This document shows, one piece after another, positions 3,337 to 64,000 of a DNA stretch of 64,000 nt. Origin of the DNA: Halovibrio variabilis. GTDB taxonomy: Bacteria; Pseudomonadota; Gammaproteobacteria; Pseudomonadales; Halomonadaceae. The notes beneath the pieces were generated by a model. That model saw only the letters and a list, made by a program, of their open reading frames with translations. It was not told the DNA's origin and made no database searches. Numbering within the stretch: position 1 is the stretch's first letter; each line of letters begins with the position of its first letter. The position numbers and the translations under genes were made by a program. The stretch is from the NCBI RefSeq assembly GCF_007991175.1, contig NZ_BJXV01000009.1:1-64000 (forward strand). The letters run 5' to 3'.

Positions 3337-5010
3337 TTAGTGTGCCTCGACTGGGCTGAACCTTGGCTTGACCGGCGCGCCGGCGGCGAAATCCCAGCCA
3401 CGCCCCGGTGCCGCTTCCATTAGTTGCCGCGTGTACTCAGCCTCTGGTTGGCCAAGCACCTGTGCTGCGGGGCCATACTCGATCAATCGCCCTCGTTGCA
3501 TTACCAGCACGTCGTCGCAAATTTGCGCAGCCACGCGCAGATCGTGGGTAATAAACAGCACGGCAATACCCAGCCTAAGCTGGATTTCGTGGAGTAGCGT
3601 GAGCACCTGGGCTTGCACCGAAACATCCAGAGCGGAGACTGCCTCATCGGCGACGATTACCTCGGGCTCCATGGCCAATGCCCGGGCAATAGCGATACGT
3701 TGGCGCTGACCACCGGAAAACTGGTGAGGGTAGCGGTCAATGGCATCAACCGGTAGCCCTACCAATTCGAGCAGCTCGCGCCCGCGAGCCAGGGCCTCGC
3801 GGCGCGACGTTCCGTAGTTGGTCGGCCCTTCAATTAGGCTCTGCCCCACCGTCATACGCGGGTTTAGCGAGCGATTGGGATCCTGAAAGATCATCTGGAT
3901 GCGCTTGCGGTGCGGCTTGAGCATCGATTTAGGCAGCTCAGTAATCTGCTTACCGCTGACCCTGATATTGCCGCCTGTTGGGGTAATAAGTCGCATCACG
4001 CAGCGCGCCAGCGTCGACTTGCCGGAGCCCGATTCCCCGACAACACCTAACGTTCGCCCGCGTTTGAGCACAAAGCTGACATCATCCACAGCGCGGGTTG
4101 GCGTTACGGGCTTACGCAGCCAGCGCAACACGCCTTGGTTAGCGTTAAACACTTTTTCAAGCGACTGCACTTCCAGCACGGTTTTATTGCTGGTGGCCTC
4201 CCGCGGCGGGCGTGGCAACAGGCTAGGCACGGCGGCAAGCAGGCGTTGGGTGTAAGCCTCTTGAGGGCTACCCAGCACCTGGTCGACAGGGCCACTTTCC
4301 ACCAGCTGGCCATGATGCATGACGCATACACGGTCAGCGATATCCACCACCACGCCCATATCGTGAGTGATAAATAGCACCGCGGTGCCATGCTCGCGCT
4401 GGAGCTGTTTAATCAACGCCAAAATCTGGTGCTGGGTAGTTACATCCAATGCGGTGGTAGGTTCGTCGGCAATCAGCAACTGAGGCTTAAGCAACAGCGC
4501 CATGGCAATCATGATGCGCTGGCGCTGGCCGCCAGAGAGCTGATGCGGGTAACTGGCATAGATGCGTTCAACGTCAGGAAGATGAACCTGTTCAAACACT
4601 TCGAGGACTCGGGCGCGTCGCTGCGGGCCTGTTTGCGAGGTGTGCTGACACAGTACTTCGTCAAGTTGGCGCCCAACACTCAGTACCGGGTTGAGCGCGG
4701 TCATCGGCTCCTGAAAGATCATCGCCATATGCCGCCCTCGCAGGGAGAGTAGCTTTGCCGGAGTGGCAGTGAGTACATCTTCACCTGCAAGCCGGATACA
4801 CCCACTTTGCGCCACTAGTGCTCCGGGGGGCAGCAGTCCCATGGTGGCCAGTGAAGTGACCGACTTGCCGGAACCGCTCTCCCCCACCAAGCACAGCGTC
4901 TCGCCAGCGTTAATGGTGAATGAGATAGCATCCAGAATGCGCGAAGGCTTACGCCCACTGGTCTCAACGACCAGCTCTTCAACCTCAAGTATCGGAGCGT
5001 CGGTCATCAT
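3337..5010 (-). CDS. Oligopeptide ABC transporter, fused dual ATP-binding protein
   Basis: This 557-residue protein carries two complete nucleotide-binding domains in one chain, as in GsiA/YejF-type peptide and glutathione importers. The first domain has Walker A GESGSGKS at ~45-52 and the signature LSGGQRQR, followed by LLIADEPTTALD. The second has a further GESGSGKS, the signature FSGGQRQR and a Walker B VIVADEAVSALD. The extension after each domain resembles the oligopeptide ATPase C terminus. It energises the two permeases encoded just upstream, and its ATG overlaps the preceding stop codon. GGAGG lies five bases before the ATG at 5010, while an alternative ATG directly follows at 5007. 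Substrate is unknown, probably a peptide or acylated amino acid from context. Confidence 0.92.
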   Translation of the reverse strand: MMTDAPILEVEELVVETSGRKPSRILDAISFTINAGETLCLVGESGSGKSVTSLATMGLLPPGALVAQSGCIRLAGEDVLTATPAKLLSLRGRHMAMIFQEPMTALNPVLSVGRQLDEVLCQHTSQTGPQRRARVLEVFEQVHLPDVERIYASYPHQLSGGQRQRIMIAMALLLKPQLLIADEPTTALDVTTQHQILALIKQLQREHGTAVLFITHDMGVVVDIADRVCVMHHGQLVESGPVDQVLGSPQEAYTQRLLAAVPSLLPRPPREATSNKTVLEVQSLEKVFNANQGVLRWLRKPVTPTRAVDDVSFVLKRGRTLGVVGESGSGKSTLARCVMRLITPTGGNIRVSGKQITELPKSMLKPHRKRIQMIFQDPNRSLNPRMTVGQSLIEGPTNYGTSRREALARGRELLELVGLPVDAIDRYPHQFSGGQRQRIAIARALAMEPEVIVADEAVSALDVSVQAQVLTLLHEIQLRLGIAVLFITHDLRVAAQICDDVLVMQRGRLIEYGPAAQVLGQPEAEYTRQLMEAAPGRGWDFAAGAPVKPRFSPVEAH

Positions 5011-5900
5011 GACATCCTCCGTTTCATTTTTGGATCAAGTGCGTCGCGGGCACTATCTCCGAGCAGGTTAATCGACAGGATGCAGGCTGAGAGCAGCAAC
5101 CCGGCCCAGAAGATAAGTGAAGGCTTAAGCTGAAAGTAGACCCGACCTTCGGACATGATATTGCCCCATGAAGGTGTCTCAGTACCGATCCCCGCGCCCA
5201 GAAATGAGAGGATGGCTTCAGTGAGAATGGCCGAAGCGCAGATATAGGTACCCTGCACTATTAATGGCGCTAAAGTACTCGGCATCAGGTGTCGCCACAG
5301 CAGCCGAGGGGTGGAGGTCCCCATTAATATCGCGGCCTCTACAAACGCCTCTTCGCGAGTCGCCAGCACTCGAGAGCGAACCAGGCGTACCACTTGGGGA
5401 ATCTCGGGAACCATAATCGCGATCATCACTGTCCACAGGGAAGCGCTGGTGAGTGAGACGATGGCAATTGCCAGTAGGATGCCGGGGATCGCCATTAATC
5501 CATCCATGATTCGCATGAGTACAGCGTCAAGAGTACGGAAGTAACCCGCCAACAAGCCTAGCGGTAAGCCTATAGCCACACTCGTCACGGCCACACCGAG
5601 CCCCACAGTCAGCGACACGCGGGCGCCGTAGACAATCCGCGAGTAGAGATCGCGTCCATAAGGGTCAGTGCCAAGCCAGAATTCACTACCCATGGGTTTC
5701 AGGCGATCAGCAGGAGATAATGCTAGCGGATCATGGTTCGCTAGCCAGGGAGCAAACAGGGCCACTGAGATAATCAAGGTCAGCACAACGCCTGCGGCAA
5801 GGGTAACCCCTCTTGGGCGAGTCTGGCTTAACCGCGACAATAGGCGACTAACGCCGCGCCCTTCGGGGGCTAGGGTCAAGTGAGAGTGCGAGGCATGCAT
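5007..5900 (-). CDS. Oligopeptide ABC transporter permease (DppC/GsiD type)
   Basis: An inner-membrane permease of 297 residues. An N-terminal cytoplasmic segment precedes the first TM helix (~35-55). Then comes the conserved loop with GTDPYGRDLYSRIVYGARVS typical of DppC proteins, and four or five further helices. The EAA-type coupling motif (EEAFVEAAILMG) sits around residues 185-197. It forms a heterodimer with the DppB-type permease whose stop codon overlaps its ATG, and it overlaps the ATPase gene by four bases, so the three are translationally coupled. Confidence 0.92.
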   Translation of the reverse strand: MHASHSHLTLAPEGRGVSRLLSRLSQTRPRGVTLAAGVVLTLIISVALFAPWLANHDPLALSPADRLKPMGSEFWLGTDPYGRDLYSRIVYGARVSLTVGLGVAVTSVAIGLPLGLLAGYFRTLDAVLMRIMDGLMAIPGILLAIAIVSLTSASLWTVMIAIMVPEIPQVVRLVRSRVLATREEAFVEAAILMGTSTPRLLWRHLMPSTLAPLIVQGTYICASAILTEAILSFLGAGIGTETPSWGNIMSEGRVYFQLKPSLIFWAGLLLSACILSINLLGDSARDALDPKMKRRMS

Positions 5901-6841
5901 CAGTAGCGAATCCTCGGGTCGGTGATCGCGTAGGAGAGGTCGATCAGTAGATTGATAATCACGTAGAGCCCGGCAGTGAGCAGAATCAACGCCTGAATCA
6001 CCGGGTAGTCGCGGGCCAGCACGGCGTCCACAATCAGCCGCCCTAAACCAGGAATATTGAAGACACTTTCGGTGACCACAACGCCAGAAATCATCAGGGC
6101 AAAGCCAGTACCAATAACGGTTAGGATCGGTACCGCTGCATTACGCAACGCATGGCGGAAGAGAACTGCACGCTCGGGAAGTCCTTTGGCGCGGGCGGTA
6201 CGGATATAATCCTCGTCGAGCACCTCAAGCATACTGGCGCGAGTCATGCGCGCGATCAGCGCGATATAGATCGAAGAGAGCGTTAGCGCTGGCAGCACGA
6301 TGCGGCTGGCGAAAGGAGCAATTCCCTCACTGAGACTTCGAAAGCCCTGCACCGGCAGCCAGCCCAGCTCAAGGGCGAACAACTGAATCAATAAATAGCC
6401 AATCACAAATACCGGCACCGAAAAGCCCACCACTGAGGCCGACATCACTAGTTTGTCGAGAAACCGCCCATGGCACCACGCGGCGATCACCCCGAGCGGA
6501 ATCGCGATAATCACAGTAAACAGCATCGCTACCACCGCTAGACTTCCAGTTGGTTCAAGACGCTGCCCGATCATGGTTAGCACAGGGGTCTGTGAGATAA
6601 GCGATGTGCCGAAATTGCCGCGCACCAGCTCGCCAAGCCAAACGAAGAACTGGATATGCAGCGGCTGGTCGAGCCCTAATGCAGCGCGAATATTAGCGAG
6701 TTGAGTGGGGCTCGCCATATCCCCAGCAATAATGGCTGCCGGATCCCCTGGCGAGAGGCGCAGTAGCAGAAAGACAAACAGCGCTACCACGAGCATAACG
6801 GGGATCGACGCTAAAATACGGCGAATAAAGTAAGCGAACAT
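5900..6841 (-). CDS. Oligopeptide ABC transporter permease (DppB/GsiC type)
   Basis: A 313-residue inner-membrane permease. It has the DppB N terminus (FIRRILASIPVMLVVALFVF), the LSPGDPA motif, the conserved GLDQPLHIQFF stretch and six TM helices. The C-terminal coupling region contains DYIRTARAKGLPERAVLFRHALRN-like residues (~213-236), and the end is TDPRIRY, typical of the family. It partners with the DppC-type permease downstream. About 97 bases separate it from the substrate-binding-protein gene, and that gap carries a strong hairpin. Confidence 0.92.
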   Translation of the reverse strand: MFAYFIRRILASIPVMLVVALFVFLLLRLSPGDPAAIIAGDMASPTQLANIRAALGLDQPLHIQFFVWLGELVRGNFGTSLISQTPVLTMIGQRLEPTGSLAVVAMLFTVIIAIPLGVIAAWCHGRFLDKLVMSASVVGFSVPVFVIGYLLIQLFALELGWLPVQGFRSLSEGIAPFASRIVLPALTLSSIYIALIARMTRASMLEVLDEDYIRTARAKGLPERAVLFRHALRNAAVPILTVIGTGFALMISGVVVTESVFNIPGLGRLIVDAVLARDYPVIQALILLTAGLYVIINLLIDLSYAITDPRIRY

Positions 6842-11294: not shown

Positions 11295-12326
11295 ATGCAG
11301 CGCTCCGATTTCTATTACCAGTTACCCGACGAGCTAATTGCTCGCTACCCTTCTGAGCAGCGTAGCGACTGCCGTTTGCTGTGCGTGGATGGCCAAAGCG
11401 GTGCGCTGGAACATCGCCGCTTTCCCGATTTGCTCGAGCTTCTGGAGCCGGGCGACCTCTTGGTGTTTAACGATACCCGGGTGATTCCGGCGCGCCTGCA
11501 CGGCCATAAAGCCAGCGGTGGCAAGGTGGAGATGCTGCTTGAACGCCCGCTGGATGCTCACCGTGGCTTAGCGCATATCCGTTCGAGCAAATCGCCCAAG
11601 CCCGGTACCGAGCTGATTTTCGAGGGCGATGTCCACGCCATTGTGGAAGGCCGGCGTGATGCGCTGTTTGAGCTGCGCTTTTTAGGTGAAACGCCAATGA
11701 TCGCGCTGCTCGAAAAATACGGCCATATGCCACTGCCGCCCTATATTACCCGCGAAGACGAACTCAGCGACCGAGAACGTTATCAAACCGTGTATGCGCG
11801 GCGTGATGGCGCGGTGGCGGCGCCGACCGCAGGGCTGCACTTTGATCAGCCACTGCTGGATGCACTGGCGGATAAAGGTATCAAGCGCACCTTTGTGACC
11901 CTGCATGTCGGCGCGGGCACCTTTCAGCCGGTGCGCGTCGACAATATTCTTGAACACCACATGCACAGCGAATGGATTGAAGTTACCGAAGCCACCTGCC
12001 AACAGGTGCGCGAGACGCTAGCGGCGGGCAAGCGCGTGGTGGCGGTCGGCACCACCAGCGTACGCTGCCTGGAAAGCGCCTGCCAAAAGAGCAGCGATGG
12101 ACAGATAGCGCCTTACAGTGGCGATACCGACATTTTCATTTATCCCGGTTACCAATGGCGCTGTGTGGATGCTTTAATTACCAACTTTCATTTGCCTGAA
12201 TCGACGCTGCTAATGCTGGTGTCTGCTTTTGCTGGCTACGAGACCATCATGCATGCCTACCAACGGGCAGTGGCCGAACGCTATGCATTTTTTAGTTATG
12301 GCGATGCCATGCTGCTGACCCGCTAG
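11295..12326 (+). CDS. queA: tRNA preQ1 ribosyltransferase-isomerase QueA
   Basis: QueA transfers the ribosyl part of S-adenosylmethionine to preQ1 in tRNA, forming epoxyqueuosine. The protein begins [19 protein letters not shown], matching the family start, so I place the start at 11295 rather than an ATG 17 codons upstream. Recognisable blocks include [15 protein letters not shown], the middle domain, [21 protein letters not shown]-like residues and [18 protein letters not shown]. Its 343 residues are slightly shorter than in E. coli. It is followed by tgt with about 80 bases between, the usual queuosine pair. Confidence 0.96.
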
Positions 12327-13535
<1,209 letters not shown>

Positions 13536-51977: not shown

Positions 51978-52691
51978 CTAAGACAACAGCAGATTACCCT
52001 GCTGTTTCCAGCGATTGACTAGCGCTGGAACGCCTTCGCCAGCGGTGGTGTTAATCGCCAGTACGCCCGGCGGGCTAAGGCTATCCGCCTCCGGGTCGAC
52101 CAATGCGCAGGGCGTGTCGTAGTCGATGTAAGACAACAGCGAGGCCGCGGGCATCACCGCCAGCGAGGTGCCCACCACCAGCAGAAAATCTGCCTGGCTG
52201 ACCAGCTCGCAGGCCTCGGCGAATAGCGGCACCGACTCGCCAAACCAGACCACGTCCGGGCGCAGCTGGCTGCCCTTATCGCAGATGTTGCCCAACTCAA
52301 TACCGCCTTTAGGCAGCGGGTAGCGCATACGCTCATCGATAGACGAGCGCGCTTTTAAAATTTCGCCGTGCAAGTGCATCACGTGACGCGACCCTGCTCG
52401 CTCATGCAGGTCGTCAATATTCTGAGTAATGATACTGACGTTGAACCCTGCCTGCTCAAGGCCCGCCAGCGCTTTATGCGCGGCGTTGGGCTTAGCACGG
52501 CGTATCTGTTCGCGGCGCTGATTGTAAAAATCCAGCACCTGCTGCGGATCGCGCTGCCAGGCTTCAGGTGTCGCCACATCCTCAACCGGGTGGTTTTCCC
52601 ACAGGCCATCGCTGGCGCGAAAGGTTTTAATCCCGCTCTCGGTGCTAATCCCCGAGCCGGTCAACACCACCAAATGCGGGCTTGCTGCCAT
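51978..52691 (-). CDS. cobB: Sir2-family NAD-dependent protein deacylase (CobB-like, zinc-less)
   Basis: A 237-residue sirtuin with NAD-binding LTGSGISTESGIKTFR, TQNIDDLHERAGS, the catalytic His108 in MHLHGE and VVGTSLAVMP near the end. Tyr56 and Arg59 (YNQR) form the class III YxxR pair associated with desuccinylase activity. The small domain ARSSIDERMRYPLPKGGIE has only Cys137, so the four zinc cysteines of E. coli CobB are missing. Zinc-less bacterial sirtuins of this kind are known. It lies 42 bases after aceK on the same strand. Confidence 0.9.
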   Translation of the reverse strand: MAASPHLVVLTGSGISTESGIKTFRASDGLWENHPVEDVATPEAWQRDPQQVLDFYNQRREQIRRAKPNAAHKALAGLEQAGFNVSIITQNIDDLHERAGSRHVMHLHGEILKARSSIDERMRYPLPKGGIELGNICDKGSQLRPDVVWFGESVPLFAEACELVSQADFLLVVGTSLAVMPAASLLSYIDYDTPCALVDPEADSLSPPGVLAINTTAGEGVPALVNRWKQQGNLLLS

Positions 52692-52733
52692 GGTTACCTC
52701 GTTGTTTGTGCTTCATTACCTGCCAATATCATC

Positions 52734-54500
52734 TTAATATACCAATTGGCCAATGCTACCCGCAAAACGCTGTTTGTTGCGGTAAGGGTAAACGTCGATA
52801 ACCCGACCATCGACTATCGCCTGCTGTAGCGCCAACCAATAATCAGGATCAAACAGCTCAGGATGCTGCTGCATAAACAGGCGGCGCAGCGCCGGATTAG
52901 CAAACATAAAGGGGCCAAACTCCTCGGGGAAAATATCATTGGCACCGATCGACAAACTCTCGCCGCCACCGCCCTGAAAGTCATTGCCATAGTTCGTGGG
53001 GATATGCCGAAAACGGCATTCGGTTAGATAGCAGACTTCGTCGTAATCGTAGAAGATCACCCGGCCATGGCGAGTGACACCGAAGTTTTTCAGCAACATA
53101 TCGCCGGGGAAGATATTGGCCGCCGCCATCTGCTTAATGGCATTGCCGTAATCCTTGAGCACCATCACCTGCTCTTTGTCGCTACACTGCTCCAAATAGA
53201 GATTGAGCGGCGTCATCATCCGTTCAGTATAGCAGTGTTTGATGATGACCTTATCGCCGCGCAGCAATACCGTCGAGGGCGCAACGTCGAGTAAGTGCGC
53301 CAGGCATTCTGGCGAAAAATGATCCTGACGCACGGTAAAGTTGGAGAACTCCTGGGTATCGGCCATGCGCCCGACCCGGTCATGGCGTTTGACTAGCCGG
53401 TACTTTTCGCGCACGCCCTCGTGGGTGACCTCTTTCGAAGGGTCGAATTTGTCCTTGATGATTTTAAACACGGTGCGAAAGCTGGGTAGCACAAATACCG
53501 CCATCACCATGCCGCGCACGCCGGGGGCAATGACAAATTGGTCCTCACGCTTGGCGACCTGGCGATTCAAGGCGCGGAAAAACTCGGTTTTGCCATGTTT
53601 GAAGAAGCCGATAGCGGCGTAAAGCTCGCCCTCGGGTTTGTGCGGCATTAACTGCTGTAGATAAGCGACAAACTCGCCCGGCACCGGCACATCGACCTGA
53701 AAGTAAGCTCGGGTGAAGGAGAAGATAATCGACACCTCATCGGTTTCGATCAGCACCGTATCCAGATGCAGGCAGGGGTCGGCATCGGCCTTGTCGCCAA
53801 AGCCTTCGCCGTGAAGTACCGGCAACACCAGCGGCACCTGCTCGCCGCCGCCGCGAATACGCCCCACCAAGTAGGCGCCTTTATTGCGATAAAACACGCT
53901 GTTTAGCAGCTCAATTTGCGTATCGTCGGCGTGCACGATCGTCGCCGGTAATTGCTGCTCTAAAAAGCTGGCCCCTAACTGGGTGTCGCTGTCGATATCC
54001 GCAAAGCGGTTATCCAAGCTTGCCTCAAGCAGCGCCCATCTAAGCGCGCCTTGCCAATCGCCATTGACCGTTTGGCGGCGGCACAGCTCAATTCCCGAGC
54101 GATGGGCAGCATCCTCCCGGGAGCTATACACAAACATCCACTCGTTGCGGATATGTCGATGGTGAAAAATTGAGCAGAACAGCGAGTTAAAGAAGGTCTC
54201 CGCGAGTTCGTAATCCAACCGATGACTGATCAGCTCGGCGTAATAGCCACGCGCTTCGCGCCAGCTCTCGCAGTGAGCGACCACCTCAGGGTCAAAGGTG
54301 CGCTTCAAGCGCCCCAGGGTGACGTCGATTTTTTGCTGATACAGATTAATCCGCTCCGCCGATGCCTGCTGGGCGTCGCGCCATGCCGCCTCGCGAAAGC
54401 GCCGGCGCGCATCGAGGGTAATGGCTTTAAAGCGCGCACGGTACTCGTCGAAACCGTGCAAAATGGTGGTCGCTAGGCGGTACGCCGGGGAGTGTTTCAC
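52734..54500 (-). CDS. aceK: Isocitrate dehydrogenase kinase/phosphatase AceK
   Basis: A bifunctional enzyme that phosphorylates and inactivates isocitrate dehydrogenase, or reactivates it, directing carbon to the glyoxylate shunt. It has 588 residues. The ATP-binding region IAPGVRGMVMAVFVLPSF is followed by the kinase domain with KIIKDKFDPSKEVTHEGV and the conserved NFGVTRHGRVIFYDYDEV segment containing the catalytic aspartates. The N-terminal regulatory domain is intact. aceA and aceB are not adjacent, unlike E. coli. Confidence 0.96.
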   Translation of the reverse strand: MKHSPAYRLATTILHGFDEYRARFKAITLDARRRFREAAWRDAQQASAERINLYQQKIDVTLGRLKRTFDPEVVAHCESWREARGYYAELISHRLDYELAETFFNSLFCSIFHHRHIRNEWMFVYSSREDAAHRSGIELCRRQTVNGDWQGALRWALLEASLDNRFADIDSDTQLGASFLEQQLPATIVHADDTQIELLNSVFYRNKGAYLVGRIRGGGEQVPLVLPVLHGEGFGDKADADPCLHLDTVLIETDEVSIIFSFTRAYFQVDVPVPGEFVAYLQQLMPHKPEGELYAAIGFFKHGKTEFFRALNRQVAKREDQFVIAPGVRGMVMAVFVLPSFRTVFKIIKDKFDPSKEVTHEGVREKYRLVKRHDRVGRMADTQEFSNFTVRQDHFSPECLAHLLDVAPSTVLLRGDKVIIKHCYTERMMTPLNLYLEQCSDKEQVMVLKDYGNAIKQMAAANIFPGDMLLKNFGVTRHGRVIFYDYDEVCYLTECRFRHIPTNYGNDFQGGGGESLSIGANDIFPEEFGPFMFANPALRRLFMQQHPELFDPDYWLALQQAIVDGRVIDVYPYRNKQRFAGSIGQLVY

Positions 54501-54606
54501 GGGGCAAACTCCTGGATGTTTTCGCTAGCGTTACCCAACGGCAAACTACATGCGAGACGACCTTGGTGGACACTGGGCTCTCAGAACCAGTCGCTACAAC
54601 CAGTCG

Positions 54607-56178
54607 CTAAGCCTCTGGCGAGGCTAACAGGGCCATTAACGGCGCTACGCTCGCTGGGTCGGCAAGCGCTGCTGATACGCTCGCAATTTCCTCTGCCAGC
54701 GGCCGGTCCTGTTCAAGGGAGGGGGCGTATTGGCGAACCCACGCGTATAACGCTTGAGACGCATGACTAAGCGAGTGGGTGTCTTTCAACTCAGCGCCCT
54801 GCGCCAGCACCAATGCCTCAATGGCTAAGATGTCGTAAAGCTGTGACAAACTGGTACTGACTCGTCGAGCCGCAATTGTCCCCAGCGGCACGATATCCTG
54901 GTTGTCAGCATTGGTGGGAATCGATTGAATCGAGGCGGGCATGGCATGGCTACGCAGCTCGGCGACAAGCGCGGTAGCACTCACCTGAGCGCCCATAAAG
55001 CCACTGTGCAAGCCGGTATCGCGCGGCTGCATAAAGGCGGGCAGCCCCTTGCTTTTTAGCGGGTCGGTAATCCTGGCGATACGCCGTTCGCTATACAGCG
55101 CCATCTGTACCAGCGCGTTATTAAGGTGGTCACTGGCAAACGCCAGCTGCTGGCCAAAAAAGTTACCGCCATGCAGCACAAGGTCGTCATCGGCAAATAA
55201 AAGCGGGTTATCGGTAACCGCCGCGAGCTCAATGCGCACCGTTTGCGCATGCTGCTCGACGACATCCCACGCCGCGCCGAGCGCTTGGGGGGCGCAGCGC
55301 AATGTGTAGGCATCTTGGGGCAGGGGGCGGTTTTGTTCGATACCGTGTTGCATGTCAGCCAGCGGTGCCGAGGCTGACTGCCAGGGAATTAATGCCGTGC
55401 TGGTTGCCGACAACCCCCAAAGCCAGCGGTGTAGCTGCTGCTGACCAGGGTGCGGGCGTAACGCGCCAATTGCGGGATGAAAGGCTTCCCGGTGGCCTTC
55501 CAACAGCTCTGCGTAAAGCAGCACCAGCAGCGTGCTGAGTTTTACCGCTCGTTGGGCACCGGTCGTGTTAAGCGCCGCGATGCCAGCGGTGGTCGAGGTC
55601 CCATTGACCAGCGAAATAGCATCTTTGCCTTTGAGTACCAGCGGCTGCCAGCCTAATTGGCGATGTGCGGTTGCGCTATCGATCCAGTCTCCCCCCTTTA
55701 GGCTCACCTTCCCTTCACCGCTCAGGGCGCGGGCTAAATGCGCTAACGGGGTTAAATCACCGCTGGCCCCCACGGTGCCGCGTGATGGCACTAGGGGCAC
55801 TAAATCGGCGTCTAACCATGCCAGCAACCGTTCAACGAGCAGTGGATTAGCGCCGGAGTGGCCCTGGGCCAAGCTGGCAATACGCGCCACCATCATCGCC
55901 CGCACATGGCGGTGCGACAGCGGTTCACCGACGCCGCTGCATAGGTGATAGACCAGATTCTGCTGTAAAAGCGCCGACTGGCTGGGGTCAACATCGGTCG
56001 TGGCTAACGGCCCATAGCCGGTGGTGACGCCGTAAATTCGCTGGCGGCGCTCAATAGCCCCACACAGAAAATCGTGCGCCTGCTCAATGGCGCGTTTTTC
56101 CTGCTCTGAAAGCACCAGCGATTGACGCCCAAGCGCTGCCGCCTCAATCTCATCAAGCGTTCGACACCCATCGCGCAT
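54607..56178 (-). CDS. tal: Aromatic amino acid ammonia-lyase, tyrosine type (TAL) for PYP chromophore
   Basis: A 523-residue HAL/PAL/TAL enzyme that uses an MIO electrophile formed from Ala138-Ser139-Gly140 (GTVGASGDLTPLAH). YGVTTGYGPL near the start is the usual Tyr loop. The residues at the ring-binding site are His78-Leu79 (QNLVYHLCSG). In Rhodobacter TAL this His-Leu pair gives tyrosine specificity, whereas PAL has Phe-Leu and histidine lyases Ser-His. Tyrosine to p-coumarate plus ammonia is therefore the predicted reaction. No hutU, hutI or hutG is nearby. It lies 39 bases downstream of the AMP-ligase and the pyp gene, so it supplies the PYP chromophore. RBS AGGA lies nine bases before the ATG. 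Confidence 0.88.
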   Translation of the reverse strand: MRDGCRTLDEIEAAALGRQSLVLSEQEKRAIEQAHDFLCGAIERRQRIYGVTTGYGPLATTDVDPSQSALLQQNLVYHLCSGVGEPLSHRHVRAMMVARIASLAQGHSGANPLLVERLLAWLDADLVPLVPSRGTVGASGDLTPLAHLARALSGEGKVSLKGGDWIDSATAHRQLGWQPLVLKGKDAISLVNGTSTTAGIAALNTTGAQRAVKLSTLLVLLYAELLEGHREAFHPAIGALRPHPGQQQLHRWLWGLSATSTALIPWQSASAPLADMQHGIEQNRPLPQDAYTLRCAPQALGAAWDVVEQHAQTVRIELAAVTDNPLLFADDDLVLHGGNFFGQQLAFASDHLNNALVQMALYSERRIARITDPLKSKGLPAFMQPRDTGLHSGFMGAQVSATALVAELRSHAMPASIQSIPTNADNQDIVPLGTIAARRVSTSLSQLYDILAIEALVLAQGAELKDTHSLSHASQALYAWVRQYAPSLEQDRPLAEEIASVSAALADPASVAPLMALLASPEA

Positions 56179-56217
56179 AGCGTAAATTCCTGTTTAAAAG
56201 CGTACTCGTCGGCTGGC

Positions 56218-57348
56218 TTACCAATCGGCTAATTTGCCCATGGCATTGGTGGGCAAGGCATCGCCGTAGGTCACCCCCACCGGGCGCTCGGCGACAGGCC
56301 ATTGGGCAATCTCTTGAGCAATCTCAACGGCGGTTTCATCGGCATGCTTCAACGGCACTACAAAGGCCTTTAAGCGTTGCTGAGCGGACTGCCCGGTGGT
56401 GCGAACAGCGCAGTCGGCGACGCTTTCCAGTGACATTAGCCGCTTAGCCACATAACCGGGACTGACATTGACACCCCCAATGGCGACGACGTCATCGTGG
56501 CGACCCTTTAGCGTAAAGGTACGCGCGTCTAGCCAGTGGGTTTCATCCAGCAGGGGGATGGCAGCGGTAGCGTCGACACGTTGAAGCTGTTGAGTGCCGT
56601 GGCGTTGCCAATGGTCTAGCAGTTGATAAGGACTGTCACGCTGCCAGCGGGTGGCCACACCGCCGGTCTCGGTGCTGCCGTAAATATCCAGCAGCCCGGT
56701 CAAACCCTGGTCGATTAACGCAGCAGATGTCGCGGCCGATAGCGGTGCGGTGGATGAGACGCCCATCACGCTGGCTGGCCATGAACGGCGTGAACGCGCC
56801 AGATAATCCCAGCGCGGCGGCACCGTAACGACCAGATCGCCGGAACTGAGGCTGGGTAACGCCGCAGCGTCCGCGCTTACCCGTGAAAGCCCCGCCACGC
56901 CAGGTAGCGCTATGCCCAGCATAAAACCGTAAAGATGATGCAGCGGCAACCAGCTAACCACTCGGTTTACCGGCATTCGTAACGCAAAGCGTTGTGCCAA
57001 GGCATGCGCCTCAGCTTCGATATGTTCCCAGCGGTGTAAGTGGGCGGTCGGTGCCCCGGTACTTCCCGAAGTGCGGAACGTAAGTCCCGATGTCTCGTTG
57101 ACCGCTTGCGCCACTAACGACGACCAGTCATCGAAACGTTGTGTCATTAATAGACGGTCTTCTGCCCCCGTCTCGTGTAAACAGAAAAACTCGTTTACGC
57201 AGGCAGCAAGGTGCAGCCTTTCAAGCGAGTCAATAACGGGCGCATGATGCCAATCTGGGGCAGCTTCCCCCCGGTAAGCGGTGAGTTCGGCGCTGAGCAG
57301 CGATTGCAGAACCGCTTTACAATCGGCTTCGGTTAGCCATTGCGGCAT
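56218..57348 (-). CDS. pcl: p-Coumarate:CoA ligase-like AMP-forming enzyme (pCL)
   Basis: A short ANL-superfamily ligase, about 376 residues from the ATG at 57348, which follows AAGGA; the frame is open to 57414. The P-loop is TFRTSGSTGAPTAHLHRWEH (A3), then SWLPLHHLYGF, YGSTETGG (A5), the hinge GRHDDVVAIGGVNVSPG (A8) and a C-terminal lysine in LPTNAMGKLADW (A10). At under 400 residues it is much shorter than plant 4CLs (over 500), with a reduced N-terminal part, as in other bacterial PYP-linked ligases. It would activate p-coumarate from the downstream lyase for transfer to PYP. Exact acceptor (CoA) is inferred. Confidence 0.86.
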   Translation of the reverse strand: MPQWLTEADCKAVLQSLLSAELTAYRGEAAPDWHHAPVIDSLERLHLAACVNEFFCLHETGAEDRLLMTQRFDDWSSLVAQAVNETSGLTFRTSGSTGAPTAHLHRWEHIEAEAHALAQRFALRMPVNRVVSWLPLHHLYGFMLGIALPGVAGLSRVSADAAALPSLSSGDLVVTVPPRWDYLARSRRSWPASVMGVSSTAPLSAATSAALIDQGLTGLLDIYGSTETGGVATRWQRDSPYQLLDHWQRHGTQQLQRVDATAAIPLLDETHWLDARTFTLKGRHDDVVAIGGVNVSPGYVAKRLMSLESVADCAVRTTGQSAQQRLKAFVVPLKHADETAVEIAQEIAQWPVAERPVGVTYGDALPTNAMGKLADW

Positions 57349-57383
57349 CCTACTATCCTTAATGAAGCCTAGGGTTTTACCCA

Positions 57384-57430
57384 TCAAAAAGAAAACGCCG
57401 CCCGACCGTATCAATCAAAGGCCAAGCGGC
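57384..57430 (-). terminator. Hairpin with T-rich tail between pyp and pcl
   Basis: GCCGC and GCGGC (57426-57430 and 57397-57401) pair, with a weaker inner GG/CC pairing, and the minus strand then reads GTTTTCTTTTTG. It may act as a leaky terminator, so that pyp mRNA exceeds pcl and tal mRNA. Confidence 0.45.
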
Positions 57431-57441
57431 AATCAGCAGCT

Positions 57442-57825
57442 TTATAACCGCTTAACAAATATCCAATACGCATCGCCAGACAGCGCTTTTTTCATATGCA
57501 CTTTCACCTTGGTAGGTGTCATCTGGTAGTCAAATACGTACTCAAACATGGTATTGAGATCGCCGCTCTTAACGCCGTCTTTGAAGCGACCCTGAAACTC
57601 TTTGCTTTGCGTGCAGGGCGCCACGTCGGTAAAGAAGTTTTTACCAATCACGCTTTTAGGATCACGACCGGTAATGCCGCCTTCCGCTGCGTTGTATTGA
57701 ACGATTTTGCCGTTGGCATCAAGCTGAATGGCGCCAAAGGCTAGTTCGTCAAGTTTTTTATCATCCATTTTTGCCAGCGAATTTTCGATATCATCGCCGC
57801 CGAAACGAACCGTTTCCATTGCCAT
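57442..57825 (-). CDS. pyp: Photoactive yellow protein PYP
   Basis: A small cytoplasmic PAS-fold blue-light receptor. In numbering that begins at METVRFGG, the key residues of Halorhodospira PYP are all there: Tyr42, Glu46, Thr50 and Arg52 in [14 protein letters not shown], and the chromophore-binding Cys69 in [11 protein letters not shown]. The C terminus [19 protein letters not shown] is nearly the same as in that protein. The protein is 127 residues from 57825 (AGGAG eight bases upstream) or 125 from the ATG at 57819; the frame extends to 57870. p-Coumarate is attached by thioester to Cys69 and isomerises on blue light. The adjacent ligase and lyase make the chromophore. The downstream signalling partner is unknown. 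Confidence 0.97.
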
Positions 57826-58003
57826 TACCGCATCTCCTGAGTAAAACGCACTATGGGATTGGTTACCCACCGAAAGCTCTACAAATATTTTACAGTAGTT
57901 ATAAAGCTAAGCTAAAAAATAGCAGCATCGATGCTCTAGGGCAATTAAATCATACGAATGGATGAATCAAATATCATACTTTAGCGAGACTGGCGTCATA
58001 CGT
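57826..58003. promoter_or_regulatory. Upstream region of pyp with a 12-bp palindrome
   Basis: An AT-rich gap. AGCATCGATGCT (57924-57935) is a perfect palindrome and ATCATAC is repeated at 57949-57955 and 57973-57979. A clear sigma-70 pair was not found for pyp. The palindrome is a candidate operator. Confidence 0.4.
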
Positions 58004-58501
58004 TCATTCTAGTAGCCCACAAACACTCGTCACCTGTAAACAAAACCGCCCGGCGGTGCGGTCGGCGATCAGAAACCCCAACTGGGTAATCTGCGCAGGC
58101 TGAATAGTCGGCGCATCGGTGAGCAGCGTGCCACGCCGCACTGCTTCAAAGGCGCGCCAGGGGAAGTGCAGCGTTTCCCAACCGTCACGCGCGGGGGTAA
58201 ATTTCACTCGATAGGCTGAAGCGTCGCCAAGGGAAGTGCTTTTCAAGCGCAGCTGATAGGTACGCCCGTCGCCGCGAACGGTGAGCGCTATGCCCTGGGC
58301 ATCCGCTAACATGGGTTCAAAACCGTTGGGCTCGCGGCGAACGGAGGCAAAGCCGCCGCCGTTTTCCAGCGACACCTCGCCATGAAAACGCCCTTCACCA
58401 TCCACAACGCTGAACGAGCTCTGGGAAACACCACCCATAACGCCATCGTCCACGGCAAACCAGCGCTGCTGTTCGTTAGGGTTATCAAAGGTTAGCTCCA
58501 T
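58004..58501 (-). CDS. CIA30-domain protein
   Basis: A 165-residue protein that resembles NADH:ubiquinone oxidoreductase intermediate-associated protein 30 domains, which have a galactose-binding-like beta-sandwich. Family features are WFAVDDGVMGGVSQSSF, FHGEVSLENGGGFASVR and a C-terminal ITQLGFLIADRTAGRF. No signal peptide is seen. Bacterial members are poorly characterised and need not concern complex I. It lies upstream of pyp on the same strand, 178 bases away, and downstream of the ethanolamine permease beyond a terminator. Confidence 0.85.
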   Translation of the reverse strand: MELTFDNPNEQQRWFAVDDGVMGGVSQSSFSVVDGEGRFHGEVSLENGGGFASVRREPNGFEPMLADAQGIALTVRGDGRTYQLRLKSTSLGDASAYRVKFTPARDGWETLHFPWRAFEAVRRGTLLTDAPTIQPAQITQLGFLIADRTAGRFCLQVTSVCGLLE

Positions 58502-58527
58502 GTTGTCTCCTTACCTTTCCTTAAGCC

Positions 58528-58567
58528 AAAAAAATAAAAGCCCCTGTACCGTGAGGCACAGAGGCTT
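58528..58567 (-). terminator. Rho-independent terminator of the eut operon
   Basis: A 13-pair stem with two mismatches (58538-58550 with 58555-58567) around GTGA. The minus strand continues with TTATTTTTTT. It follows the ethanolamine permease stop at 58605. Confidence 0.82.
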
Positions 58568-58604
58568 CAAAGACATCATTAGCCTAGGTGATTAGCCCTG
58601 CCAA

Positions 58605-60047
58605 TTACAGCTTGCTCGCGGCTACCGGCACCGGGGCCACGTCGTTATCGTCCAGGTCTTCAGGCGAGGCGACCACCAGGGCGAATTCTTCTTCGGCCGT
58701 TTTCGCCACCAGGTTATTTTTGCTGTAAAGGAAGTAATAGGCGGCACCGGCGATGAACAGCACGATCGTGTAGTTAAACGCGCGGGGATCAAACGCGTAC
58801 ACGCCCGTCAGCGCGACAATTGCCAGCACTAAGGCAATCGATGAGGTCACTACCCCGCCCGGGGTTTTATAGGGGCGCGGCAGATCGGGCTGTTTTACTC
58901 GCAACATAATGTGGCTCAGTGCCATCAATGCGTATGAGATCGTCGCACCCACTACGGCCATGCCTAAAATCAAATCGCCTTCGCCACTGAGTGACACCAA
59001 AAAGCCAAACACGCCGGGCACGATCAGCGCTAAATAGGGCACTTTACGCTCGCTGGTCAGCGACAGGCGCTTAGGTAAATAGCCTGCCCGCGAGAGCGCA
59101 AACACCAATCGGCTGTAGCCATAGATAATCGAGAAGAACGAAGCAATTAAGCCTGCCAGTCCCAATACGTTGACCAGTGTGGCCAGCACCGGGCTGCCTG
59201 CGACGTTCAGCGCATCAACTAACGGCACACCGCTTTGGCCGATCATTTCGGCCCCCGCCGCTCCGGCCAGCAGCACCACCACTAGCAAGGCGGTGAACAG
59301 CAAAAACAGCATCGCACCGATAATGCCTTTGGGCATATCCCGCGCAGGGTCTTTGGCCTCTTCCGCCGCCAGCGGAACACCCTCAACCGCTAAGAACAAC
59401 CACATACCAAACGGCAGCGCCGCCCAAATGCCGTACCAGCCAAACGGCATAAAGGTGCTGGCACCCGCGGCATCGGTAGGGGCAATATCAAACAGATTAG
59501 CCGCATCAAAATTACCGATTAGCGCCACCGCGGTAGCCAGAATGGCGAACACCGCCAGGCCGCTAATTACCATCATCACTTTGAGCGCTTCGCCTACGCC
59601 GGCCAGGTGAATGCCGATAAAGATGGCATAAAACAGAAGATAGACGAGCGGCCCGTTGATCCCCAGCAGCGATTCCACCGCGGCGCCGATAAAAATCACA
59701 ATCGCCGCAGGGGCCAAAGCGTACTCAATCAGTACCGCCAACCCCGTTAAGTAACCACCGGCTGGCCCCATGGCCTGGCGGGCAAAGCTGTAGCCGCCAC
59801 CCGCGGCGGGAATCGCCGCCGACATTTCCGCAAGCGACAGTACCAGCGCCAGATACATCAGCGCCATTAAGCAGGCGGCAATCGCAAAGCCGCCCCAGCC
59901 GGCTTCGGCAATGCCAAAGTTCCAGCCGGCGAAGTCACCGGAAATCACGTAGGAAACCCCTAACCCCGCCAGCAGCATCCAGCCGGCGGTGCCTTTGCGT
60001 AGCTGGCGCTTGGCCAGATACGCTTGATTAACAGATGGTTGTGTCAT
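58605..60047 (-). CDS. eat: Ethanolamine permease (APC family)
   Basis: An inner-membrane transporter of about 480 residues with some 12 TM helices. It begins MTQPSVNQAYLAKRQLRKG at 60047 (AGGG upstream), and the earlier open frame to 60230 overlaps eutC and is unlikely. APC motifs are GDFAGWNFGIAEAGWGGF, AAIPAAGGGYSFARQAMGP and YGYSRLVFALSRAGYLP. Position in eutB-eutC-eat indicates ethanolamine uptake. The C-terminal tail is hydrophilic and acidic. Confidence 0.93.
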   Translation of the reverse strand: MTQPSVNQAYLAKRQLRKGTAGWMLLAGLGVSYVISGDFAGWNFGIAEAGWGGFAIAACLMALMYLALVLSLAEMSAAIPAAGGGYSFARQAMGPAGGYLTGLAVLIEYALAPAAIVIFIGAAVESLLGINGPLVYLLFYAIFIGIHLAGVGEALKVMMVISGLAVFAILATAVALIGNFDAANLFDIAPTDAAGASTFMPFGWYGIWAALPFGMWLFLAVEGVPLAAEEAKDPARDMPKGIIGAMLFLLFTALLVVVLLAGAAGAEMIGQSGVPLVDALNVAGSPVLATLVNVLGLAGLIASFFSIIYGYSRLVFALSRAGYLPKRLSLTSERKVPYLALIVPGVFGFLVSLSGEGDLILGMAVVGATISYALMALSHIMLRVKQPDLPRPYKTPGGVVTSSIALVLAIVALTGVYAFDPRAFNYTIVLFIAGAAYYFLYSKNNLVAKTAEEEFALVVASPEDLDDNDVAPVPVAASKL

Positions 60048-60162
60048 CGTTTTGCCCTCATGGTGTGGAACATAATCGTCGCAAGCGGCGTGCTGGTGAT
60101 TACTCACGTTGTTCCGTGTTGTTGTGTGATTATTATTAGCGAGTGTCGCTCGTGGGGGGACG

Positions 60163-60999
60163 TTAATCCGCCACCAAAAAGTTACGCGTCGAGCCTGAGG
60201 CTGAGTCGCCTTCCAGTACGTCGTCTTCACTGCGGTCTTTTAATTGAACGCCTGATAACTTGAGCTGGCGGGCCTCTTTTAAGAGCAGAAAGAAGCGCCG
60301 AGCAGCCTCCTCCACTTGCAGGCCTGCCGGGCGCACGTTGGAAATACAGTTGCGGCGGTCATCCTTAAGCCCTGGCTCTGGTGCCCAGGTCATATACAGC
60401 CCCAGGCTATCCGGCGAGCTCAGCCCCGGCCGCTCGCCGATCATCACCAGCACGGCATCGGCATTGAGCAGTGCGCCAATTTCGTCGCCAATCGCCACCC
60501 GCCCCTGCTCGACAAGTGTCAGTGGTGCTAGCGTCCAATCAGCCGCATCGCTGTTCAGCATCTGATAAAGCGCGCTAAGAAACGGCGCACTGTTCTGCTG
60601 AACGGCCAGCGCAGAAAGCCCATCGACCACGACCACCGCAAGGTCATAGCGCTGCTGAGACTCAGCGGCTTGCTGTAGGTACTCACGGGTCTCGTCGTTA
60701 AGGCGACGGCCATAGTCGGGCCGCTGCAGGTACATGGCACGGTCCTGGGCATAGCTGTGCAGGCGCAGCGGTGCTTTAGACAAATCCAGCGCTTCGGTTA
60801 ACGCTTTCGCCAAAGTTTCTACCTCAAGCGGGCAATGAACCGCATCCTGGGCCTGGGCATGGGCGAGTTGAAAAGCCAGTAGCTTGTTGGTGGGCAGGCT
60901 GACCCCAGCACGCCCCAAACCAATCCGTGCATCGGTAAAGGCATTCAGCCGCTCCCAGGGGTTTTCCACCACGATGGGGGATGAAGGTTTATCCGCCAT
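60163..60999 (-). CDS. eutC: Ethanolamine ammonia-lyase small subunit EutC
   Basis: With EutB it forms the adenosylcobalamin-dependent enzyme that splits ethanolamine to acetaldehyde and ammonia. The start at 60999 has AAGGAG seven bases upstream, giving 278 residues. It overlaps the end of eutB by 11 bases; the upstream frame to 61116 lies within eutB. Motifs are TDARIGLGRAGVSLPT, LQRPDYGRRLND, VVVDGLSALAVQ, MIGERPGLSSPDSLG and NCISNVRPAGL. Confidence 0.95.
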   Translation of the reverse strand: MADKPSSPIVVENPWERLNAFTDARIGLGRAGVSLPTNKLLAFQLAHAQAQDAVHCPLEVETLAKALTEALDLSKAPLRLHSYAQDRAMYLQRPDYGRRLNDETREYLQQAAESQQRYDLAVVVVDGLSALAVQQNSAPFLSALYQMLNSDAADWTLAPLTLVEQGRVAIGDEIGALLNADAVLVMIGERPGLSSPDSLGLYMTWAPEPGLKDDRRNCISNVRPAGLQVEEAARRFFLLLKEARQLKLSGVQLKDRSEDDVLEGDSASGSTRNFLVAD

Positions 61000-63584: not shown

Positions 63585-64000
63585 TTAGCTCAGCCAGCGC
63601 TGAGCAAATCGCTCGGCGGTGAGAGGCCGGTCAAAGTAATAACCTTGACCCTGAGCGCAGCCCATCGAGACCAACGCGTCTAATTGAGCCTGACTTTCGA
63701 TTCCTTCCGCTATTGTCTCTAGCCCCAGCGTATTCGCCATAGCAATAATCGTCGCCACAATCACACGGTCGTTGTCGCTGGTCAGCATATCGCGTACGAA
63801 AGAGATATCGATTTTGATTTTAGCGGCGGCAAAGCGTTTTAAATAAGCCAGCGACGAGTACCCCGTGCCGAAGTCGTCGATGGCTAGCCCAAACCCATGG
63901 TTTTTTAGCACTTCGGTCATGGCAATCGCTTTTTCGGGATTGACCATGATGCCGCTCTCGGTAATTTCCAGACTAAGTTGCCATGCTTCTAAACCGAAAT
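63585..64000 (-). CDS. EAL-domain c-di-GMP phosphodiesterase, C-terminal part
   Basis: The gene starts beyond the right edge; the frame is open to base 64000. The last ~138 residues form the C-terminal half of an EAL domain. They contain LSLEITESG, IDDFGTGYSSLAYLKR, KIDISFVRDM, TIAEGIES and GQGYYFDRPL, so metal and catalytic residues in this part are intact and phosphodiesterase activity is likely. Upstream domains (GGDEF, PAS, membrane) cannot be seen. The stop lies next to that of the AraC-type gene. Confidence 0.93.
   Translation of the reverse strand, partial: FGLEAWQLSLEITESGIMVNPEKAIAMTEVLKNHGFGLAIDDFGTGYSSLAYLKRFAAAKIKIDISFVRDMLTSDNDRVIVATIIAMANTLGLETIAEGIESQAQLDALVSMGCAQGQGYYFDRPLTAERFAQRWLS

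What the first reader, a model, noticed from the sequence alone, without database searches (positions are those of the whole stretch)
54607..57825. Self-contained photoactive yellow protein module: pyp-pcl-tal
Three same-strand genes encode the receptor (all of Tyr42, Glu46, Thr50, Arg52 and Cys69 present), a short p-coumarate ligase and a tyrosine-type ammonia-lyase. This is all that is needed to make holo-PYP from tyrosine. In Halorhodospira and Rhodobacter such genes are known. In a heterotrophic halomonad without visible photosynthesis genes the purpose of blue-light sensing is unclear, and the output partner is not obvious in the window.
Basis: partly seen in the sequence, partly recalled or inferred. 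Interest (0 to 1): 0.8.

Follow-up and report, generated by a model that had tools for sequence, protein, structure and literature searches.

The report
Blue-light sensor with chromophore-making genes
This salt-loving bacterium carries a known type of blue-light sensor together with the enzymes expected to build its yellow pigment, and several close relatives have dropped the first enzyme yet keep the sensor intact, which suggests they get the pigment precursor some other way.

Summary
On the minus strand, 57825-54607 encodes a photoactive yellow protein (PYP, 79% identical to Halorhodospira halophila PYP, pocket residues kept), a short 4-coumarate-CoA-ligase-like protein and a lyase with the His-Leu pair of tyrosine ammonia-lyases, in the H. 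halophila order. It is a known kind; fluorescent tags have already been made from two Halomonas PYPs. The comparison adds something. In 18 Halomonas/Vreelandella genomes the cassette sits between a CIA30-family gene and aceK; in 32 of 53 other aceK flanks these genes are adjacent and the site is empty. In 7 of the 18 only the lyase is cleanly missing (lyase state changes 4 times among the 18, 5 among 23 cassettes), while PYP and ligase stay under strong purifying selection. Lyase-less PYP genomes tend to carry an aryl-polyene-type lyase or a hydroxycinnamate gene (8 of 10, versus 1 of 13 with the lyase), but this test is post hoc and not significant once kinship is allowed for. No output partner is fixed beside the gene here; some relatives with the cassette elsewhere have MCP-CheB-CheR or c-di-GMP genes next to it.

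The parts
57442..57825 (-). pyp: photoactive yellow protein, 127 aa, single PAS-type domain
   Evidence: TIGR02373 212 bits over cut-off 143; best PDB matches are PYP chains; 15 of 15 checked positions as in H. halophila PYP, 79% identity
56218..57348 (-). pcl: short 4-coumarate-CoA-ligase-like protein, expected to activate p-coumarate for transfer to PYP
   Evidence: TIGR02372 E 7.7e-98 but 7 bits under the curated cut-off; PF00501 over cut-off; a ligase match lies near pyp in 78 of 80 named relatives (of the other two, one ends at a contig edge)
54607..56178 (-). tal: aromatic amino acid ammonia-lyase, predicted tyrosine-specific (His-Leu pair in NLVYHLCSGVG, MIO motif in ASGDLTPLAH)
   Evidence: PF00221; motif comparison with S-H (HutH) and F-H lyases of the family
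57826..58003 (-). Upstream region of pyp with a block recognisable in 18 of 18 same-site loci; a -35/-10 pair (TTGCCC, 17 nt, TATTTT near 57944-57916, TG before the second) is my own reading, 8 of 12 consensus bases
   Evidence: alignment; the scan does not list this pair (its limit is 9 of 12); the 19-mer at 57940-57958 has one other match, with 3 mismatches, in the genome
54501..54606 (-). Downstream junction with the aceK leader (CCACCAAGGTCGTCTCGCATGTAGTTTGC, 54569-54541), which directly follows CIA30 in empty sites, follows tal here, and follows pcl where tal is gone
58004..58501 (-). Upstream flank: CIA30-family protein (not part of the cassette)
   Evidence: PF08547; directly upstream of aceK in 32 of 53 other flanks
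52734..54500 (-). Downstream flank: aceK, isocitrate dehydrogenase kinase/phosphatase (not part of the cassette)
   Evidence: NF002804 over cut-off; found in 74 of 82 genus genomes
63585..64000 (-). 3' part of a 790-aa EAL-type gene that continues beyond the window (G000:C9:63585-65957); weak candidate for a c-di-GMP output, not at this place in 10 of 18 same-site loci
   Evidence: EAL by tblastn; a GGDEF motif read by eye in the translation; not scanned with Pfam

Best explanation
The locus is a complete blue-light receptor cassette. The lyase deaminates tyrosine to p-coumarate, the ligase makes p-coumaroyl-CoA, and PYP takes the p-coumaroyl group on Cys69 to become a yellow holoprotein absorbing near 446 nm with a sub-second photocycle. 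The three genes are transcribed from a promoter just upstream of pyp. The partner protein is encoded elsewhere in the genome and is most likely a chemotaxis transducer or a c-di-GMP enzyme. Identity of the parts and their shared inheritance are shown here by sequence; chemistry, spectrum, transcription and partner are inferred from the family.
For: Family scores and residues. Same order as the H. halophila operon, whose TAL and pCL activities were shown experimentally according to PMC12826048. The six Thr50 PYPs in that paper absorb at 440-447 nm. The cassette lies between CIA30 and aceK in 18 genomes; in 32 of 53 other aceK flanks those two genes are adjacent. PYP, ligase and lyase distances are correlated over 14 loci (r 0.87-0.96, 0 of 2000 permutations as high). 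PYP dN/dS is 0 to 0.056 in the 8 close pairs printed. The window genome has 22 MCP-type matches, 21 over the cut-off, and FliG. In 4 of the 15 other loci signalling genes stand directly beside the cassette: MCP-CheB-CheR (L046), MCP (L047), GGDEF-EAL (L035), receiver and histidine kinases (L038).
Against: The ligase is 7 bits under its curated cut-off and the lyase reaches no NCBIfam cut-off. No output gene is fixed next to the cassette in the window lineage, and in 11 of the 15 other loci none is directly adjacent by my reading. No background rate of such neighbours was computed. The L046 MCP has only a 28% match in the window genome.
Confidence: 0.9

Rival explanations
1. Chromophore supply is exchangeable: the lyase is the dispensable member, and many PYP-bearing halomonads take p-coumarate from an aryl-polyene pathway lyase or from the environment, so that PYP there reports light only when p-coumarate is present. 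The window strain is the self-sufficient form. (This extends the best explanation to the relatives and does not compete with it for the window itself.)
For: Lyase cleanly absent at the same site in 7 of 18 genomes, with the pcl stop followed by the aceK leader; no lyase over 40% identity elsewhere in those 7; the lyase state changes 4 times among the 18 and 5 times among 23 cassettes, 4 of the 5 forced by starred branches; PYP dN/dS 0.027-0.044 and ligase 0.109-0.140 in lyase-less pairs, similar to lyase-bearing ones; F-H lyase or NF006588 match over cut-off in 8 of 10 lyase-less or split PYP genomes of the genus, 1 of 13 with intact lyase, 13 of 59 without PYP, Fisher p 0.0007 for both contrasts.
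Against: The composite of two genes was chosen after seeing the data. With G210 (split lyase) counted as lyase-bearing it is 7 of 9 versus 2 of 14, p 0.007. In pairs independent on the aceK tree there are 0 contrary and on average 2.7 of 5 in the predicted direction, sign test p 0.25. NF006588 alone is not significant between lyase-less and lyase-bearing genomes (p 0.13), and its independent pairs go 1.0 one way and 1.2 the other (all). G237 and G232 have neither source. The substrate of the F-H lyase is unknown, and the name hydroxycinnamoyl-CoA hydratase-lyase for NF006588 (PRK09120) is recalled.
Confidence: 0.35
2. The cassette is decaying baggage: after arrival by transfer it is being lost piece by piece (first the lyase, then all), and PYP has no function in heterotrophic halomonads.
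For: Patchy distribution: occupied versus empty needs 9 changes on the aceK tree of 71 rows; one lyase lies in two frames in a one-contig genome (G210).
Against: PYP is under strong purifying selection in lyase-bearing and lyase-less genomes alike, and its upstream block is recognisable in 18 of 18 loci. In the 18 loci PYP and ligase matches run over nearly their full length without stops.
Confidence: 0.07
3. The lyase is a histidine or phenylalanine lyase serving catabolism and is next to pyp by accident.
For: Its highest NCBIfam scores are two HutH-type models.
Against: It is 75 and 104 bits below those two cut-offs, while the one HutH of the genus that I scanned (G248) passes both; its motif is His-Leu, not Ser-His; it is inherited with the ligase.
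Confidence: 0.03

Closest known systems
Halorhodospira halophila pyp-pcl-tal operon
   Same: Same three genes in the same order according to PMC12826048; PYP 79% identical with all 15 checked positions kept
   Different: Host is a halomonad without photosynthesis genes in view; the site is CIA30-aceK; lyase repeatedly lost in sister species. The H. halophila ligase and lyase were not compared directly
Vreelandella (Halomonas) boliviensis LC1 and Halomonas sp. GFAJ-1 PYPs (parents of HboL-FAST and HspG-FAST)
   Different: PMC11347991 names these PYPs as scaffolds for fluorescent tags (passages); I saw no statement there on their gene neighbourhood or function in the cell
Idiomarina loihiensis PYP
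   Same: Single-domain PYP in a non-photosynthetic gammaproteobacterium (recalled); PYPs of other Idiomarina species are 74-78% identical to the window's
   Different: A role in blue-light control of biofilm is cited for it (PMC12826048); I. loihiensis itself was not among the loci fetched; nothing is known of the function here
Rhodobacter sphaeroides TAL (PDB 2o6y, organism and name from recall)
   Same: Best solved match of the lyase; the His-Leu pair is at the same place
   Different: Listed as putative histidine ammonia-lyase in the PDB table; its gene context was not compared here

Membership tests
Photoactive yellow protein (TIGR02373) | Equivalog model over its cut-off, about 125 residues | tested here: met
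   212.2 bits, cut-off 143.05, positions 1-124 of 124
Photoactive yellow protein (TIGR02373) | Chromophore pocket with Cys69, Glu46, Tyr42 | tested here: met
   All 15 positions checked equal H. halophila PYP
Photoactive yellow protein (TIGR02373) | Covalent p-coumarate, absorbance near 446 nm, photocycle | not testable with these tools
   Needs purified protein
PYP-type 4-coumarate-CoA ligase (TIGR02372) | Equivalog model over its cut-off | tested here: not met
   327.7 bits, cut-off 334.7; match starts at residue 61 of the 398-aa frame scanned. I therefore call it ligase-like; its function rests on this near miss and on synteny
PYP-type 4-coumarate-CoA ligase (TIGR02372) | Forms p-coumaroyl-CoA | not testable with these tools
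   Enzyme assay needed
Tyrosine ammonia-lyase | MIO-forming Ala-Ser-Gly in a PF00221 lyase | tested here: met
   ASGDLTPLAH; PF00221 E 2.8e-147
Tyrosine ammonia-lyase | His-Leu selectivity pair (rule recalled; the pair in 2o6y is visible) | tested here: met
   NLVYHLCSGVG in window; HutH-type lyases of the genus have LSH, the F-H type has TFH
Tyrosine ammonia-lyase | Tyrosine as preferred substrate | not testable with these tools
   Kinetics needed
Histidine ammonia-lyase (HutH, TIGR01225) | Equivalog model over its cut-off | tested here: not met
   435 bits, cut-off 539; a HutH of the genus scores 734
pyp operon (H. halophila type) | pyp, pcl, tal on one strand in this order | tested here: met
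pyp operon (H. halophila type) | Transcribed as one message | not tested
   Only gene spacing and strand are known here

The most novel reading that the evidence does not exclude
In halomonads PYP is fed from an exchangeable p-coumarate pool. The dedicated lyase is lost over and over where p-coumarate comes from the aryl-polyene pigment pathway or from plant and algal phenolics, turning PYP into a light sensor gated by pigment synthesis or by environmental phenolics.
Probability: 0.3. Interest if true: 0.65.

Novelty: new member of a known kind. Interest (0 to 1): 0.42.

Why it matters
The cassette itself is known. Its use is as a natural experiment: closely related strains with the same PYP at the same site, with and without the lyase and with and without the whole cassette, would let one test what PYP does in a heterotroph and where its chromophore comes from. 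PMC12826048 found TAL in only 7 of 113 predicted pyp operons and named uptake of p-coumarate from the environment as one possibility. Here that question can be put to sister species whose loci differ by one gene.

Tried and rejected
Rejected: chance (family scores); HutH identity; a known RNA element at 52000-60500 (one sub-threshold Rfam match, E 0.93); a shared regulatory motif elsewhere in the genome (the 19-mer upstream of pyp has one other match, with 3 mismatches, against one in the backwards control). Motility as a correlate: FliG in 22 of 23 PYP+ and 48 of 59 PYP- genomes, p 0.16. BLUF as a second blue-light receptor: 0 of 82 genus genomes; LOV was not searched. The L046 MCP as a conserved partner: outside G218 no match over 51% identity among those listed, and the better ones cover only the part after about residue 190 of the 440-residue query.

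Literature: 'photoactive yellow protein' with 'Halomonas' gave 4 papers, with 'Idiomarina' 17, with 'Vreelandella' none, with 'blue light', 'biofilm' and 'c-di-GMP' 11, 10 listed, with 'exogenous', 'p-coumaric acid' and 'tyrosine ammonia lyase' 7; 'aryl polyene' with 'ammonia lyase' 4, with 'coumaric' 6, 5 listed. By titles and abstract starts none of the 4 Halomonas papers studies PYP function in a halomonad, and none of those on aryl polyenes deals with their lyase as a p-coumarate source. Read: PMC12826048 parts 1-5 of 8; passages of PMC11347991 and PMC9664959. I did not use structure prediction, fold search or RNA models.

Rows dropped before counts: 20 genomes with weak PAS-type matches only (under the PYP cut-off) were not counted as PYP+, nor was the weak second copy in G140 (L045, 58 bits). 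Of 74 aceK-bearing genus genomes, 18 are the same-site loci and 53 further flanks were fetched; G244 (contig edge), G223 and G267 (broken aceK) were left out. The split lyase of G210 was left out of the dN/dS and distance tables, counted as lyase-bearing in the trees, and as lyase-less in the main test (the other counting is given too). The tests use the 82 genus genomes only, 23 of the 32 PYP+ genomes of the family.
Full report
WHAT IS THERE. On the minus strand the order is CIA30-family gene (58501-58004), pyp (57825-57442), ligase (57348-56218), lyase (56178-54607), aceK (54500-52734). PYP scores 212 bits against a cut-off of 143 for TIGR02373, matches PYP chains in the PDB first, and keeps all 15 pocket and tuning residues checked, at 79% identity to H. 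halophila PYP. The ligase matches TIGR02372 at 327.7 bits, 7 under the cut-off. The lyase is PF00221, matches PDB 2o6y best (recalled as R. sphaeroides TAL), carries NLVYHLCSGVG with the His-Leu pair, and falls short of the cut-offs of all 8 NCBIfam models it matches. HutH-type lyases of the genus have LSH in that place, and the one scanned passes the HutH cut-offs.

DISTRIBUTION. In 275 genomes of the family, 32 have PYP over the cut-off: 23 of 82 in the window's genus, 2 in g8, 4 in g14, 3 in g15; one genome has two, so 33 loci (genus size). The genus is Halomonas/Vreelandella: contigs of the same lengths bear those names. Outside the family the nearest relatives include Alkalimonas, Rheinheimera and Idiomarina. 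A lyase-like gene lies within 3.5 kb of pyp, on either strand, in 38 of the 68 named loci with enough flank, 24 of them at 45% identity or more to the lyase queries (out of the 80 loci). That is more than the 7 of 113 predicted operons of PMC12826048, but my set is biased to near relatives, and I did not check whether the remaining 14 are tyrosine lyases.

ONE SITE, ONE UNIT. 18 of the 33 loci sit between CIA30 and aceK. The other 15 have different neighbours. Of 53 further aceK flanks fetched, 32 have CIA30 upstream within 300 bases and no cassette between, including four genomes that carry PYP elsewhere; in one of the 32 (G233) only the first 17 residues of CIA30 match. By my reading, 27 of the 32 keep GTCGYCTCG in the aceK leader, and 13 of the 18 occupied sites keep it after the cassette, the rest with variants or shortened. 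So the insert in the window is the three genes with their upstream region. PYP, ligase and lyase distances are correlated over 14 lyase-bearing loci (r 0.87-0.96; 0.71-0.88 over the 10 same-site ones; none of 2000 permutations as high), so the lyase travelled with the others. On the aceK tree (71 rows, quick method) the occupied state needs 9 changes; I cannot say how many are losses, gains or exchanges.

THE LYASE IS REPEATEDLY LOST. In 7 of the 18 same-site loci (G236, G237, G238, G248, G251, G259, G262) the ligase stop is followed after 75-96 bases by the aceK start, and no lyase remnant was found by tblastn. Three of the 7 records are labelled MAGs (G236, G237, G251), but the gap lies inside a contig each time. 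A search of all 32 PYP+ genomes with the window lyase finds nothing above 40% identity elsewhere in these 7; G237, G232, G135 and G139 have no match at all at E 0.001. G210 has the lyase in two frames, in a one-contig genome; it may be a real break or a sequence error. On the PYP+ligase tree of 23 rows, with G210 as lyase-bearing, the lyase state needs 5 changes (4 among the 18 same-site rows), at least 4 of the 5 forced by starred branches, 5-6 over bootstraps. Since lyase-bearing rows lie on both sides of the root and the lyase is inherited with the ligase, I read these as losses. PYP in lyase-less pairs has dN/dS 0.027-0.044, ligase 0.109-0.140 (4 pairs); lyase-bearing pairs give 0-0.056 and 0.132-0.188 (3 pairs); the mixed pair G236/G208 gives 0.017 and 0.144 (simple counting method, dS near 1 in some pairs). 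The receptor and ligase are thus kept about as strictly without the lyase as with it.

WHERE MIGHT THE CHROMOPHORE COME FROM. Four of the 7 (G236, G248, G251, G262) carry another PF00221 lyase with TFHGCGLG. I looked at its neighbourhood in G236, G248 and G262: similar gene sets by eye, with a ketosynthase and a DUF3261 protein confirmed by Pfam in G248 only, where a 764-aa gene gave no family. I identify this from recall as an aryl-polyene cluster. Its top NCBIfam model is the tyrosine lyase BagA/FevW in one of two proteins and HutH in the other, all under cut-off, so its substrate is open. Over the genus this lyase (E 1e-90 or better with the G236 protein) is in 5 of 10 lyase-less or split PYP genomes, 0 of 13 lyase-bearing, 7 of 59 without PYP (p 0.007 lyase-less versus lyase-bearing, 0.011 versus no PYP). 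NF006588 over its cut-off (name hydroxycinnamoyl-CoA hydratase-lyase recalled) is in 4 of 10, 1 of 13 and 6 of 59 (p 0.13 and 0.03). Either: 8 of 10, 1 of 13, 13 of 59 (p 0.0007 for both contrasts); with G210 counted as lyase-bearing, 7 of 9 versus 2 of 14, p 0.007. The composite is post hoc. In pairs independent on the tree there are 0 contrary and on average 2.7 concordant out of 5, p 0.25; for NF006588 alone 1.0 against 1.2. Outside the genus, in g15 the F-H lyase is in 11 genomes including all 3 PYP carriers, so there it is background; of the lyase-less g14 genomes G135 has NF006588 over cut-off and G139 does not. G237 and G232 lack both. The window strain has its own lyase and neither alternative.

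OUTPUT. The window lineage has no fixed signalling neighbour. An EAL-type gene about 6 kb upstream has a homologue at that place in 8 of 18 same-site loci. Among the 15 other loci, signalling genes are directly beside the cassette in four: MCP-CheB-CheR after tal in Vreelandella massiliensis (L046), MCP after tal in Halomonas llamarensis (L047, with a GGDEF-EAL two genes on), two GGDEF-EAL genes, the first next to pcl, in Marinospirillum alkaliphilum (L035), and receivers and histidine kinases before the second V. massiliensis pyp (L038; the nearest receiver named by eye); a REC-GGDEF and a hybrid kinase follow one gene away in H. salicampi (L048). No background rate was computed. These fit the phototaxis and c-di-GMP outputs proposed in PMC12826048. 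The window genome has 22 MCP-type matches, 21 over the cut-off, and FliG, and no BLUF.

KNOWN OR NEW. The cassette is the H. halophila kind, and halomonad PYPs are in print as tag scaffolds (PMC11347991, passages). PMC12826048 and PMC9664959 do not contain the word Halomonas in the main text held; their supplements were not open to me. I did not see the repeated clean loss of the lyase at a fixed site described in what I read, but none of the searches named in Tried and rejected was aimed at it alone.

Noticed in passing
L051 (G210:C1, Halomonas sp. A40-4) 11381-12933: The lyase reads in two different frames in a one-contig genome; a break or a sequence error.
   Followed up: partly
L054 (G195, Vreelandella andesensis) 4813-6812: A MerR-resolvase gene and a gene with a weak Cas12f1-like TNB match (IS607-like with TnpB, named from recall) lie between tal and aceK.
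   Followed up: partly
L038 (G218:C2) and L046 (G218:C1): V. massiliensis has two PYPs: one with pcl-tal-MCP-CheB-CheR, one without ligase after a receiver/histidine kinase cluster.
   Followed up: partly
L045 (G140:C183) 1872-2240: A diverged second PYP-like protein (26% identical, under the cut-off) keeps the Cys69, Tyr42 and Glu46 positions but differs at other pocket positions.
   Followed up: no
window 54569-54541: The aceK leader holds a stretch (CCACCAAGGTCGTCTCGCATGTAGT) whose core GTCGYCTCG recurs in 27 of 32 empty sites and 13 of 18 occupied ones; possible regulatory element of aceK.
   Followed up: partly
window 57442-57825: pyp has 46% G+C against 59-60% for its two enzyme genes and 57.5% for the window.
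   Followed up: no
82 genus genomes: No BLUF protein in any of 82 genomes, so PYP may be one of few blue-light receptors of the genus (LOV not searched).
   Followed up: partly
L205 (G266): A near relative of the lyase-less G248/G251 on the aceK tree has an empty site and no F-H lyase.
   Followed up: no
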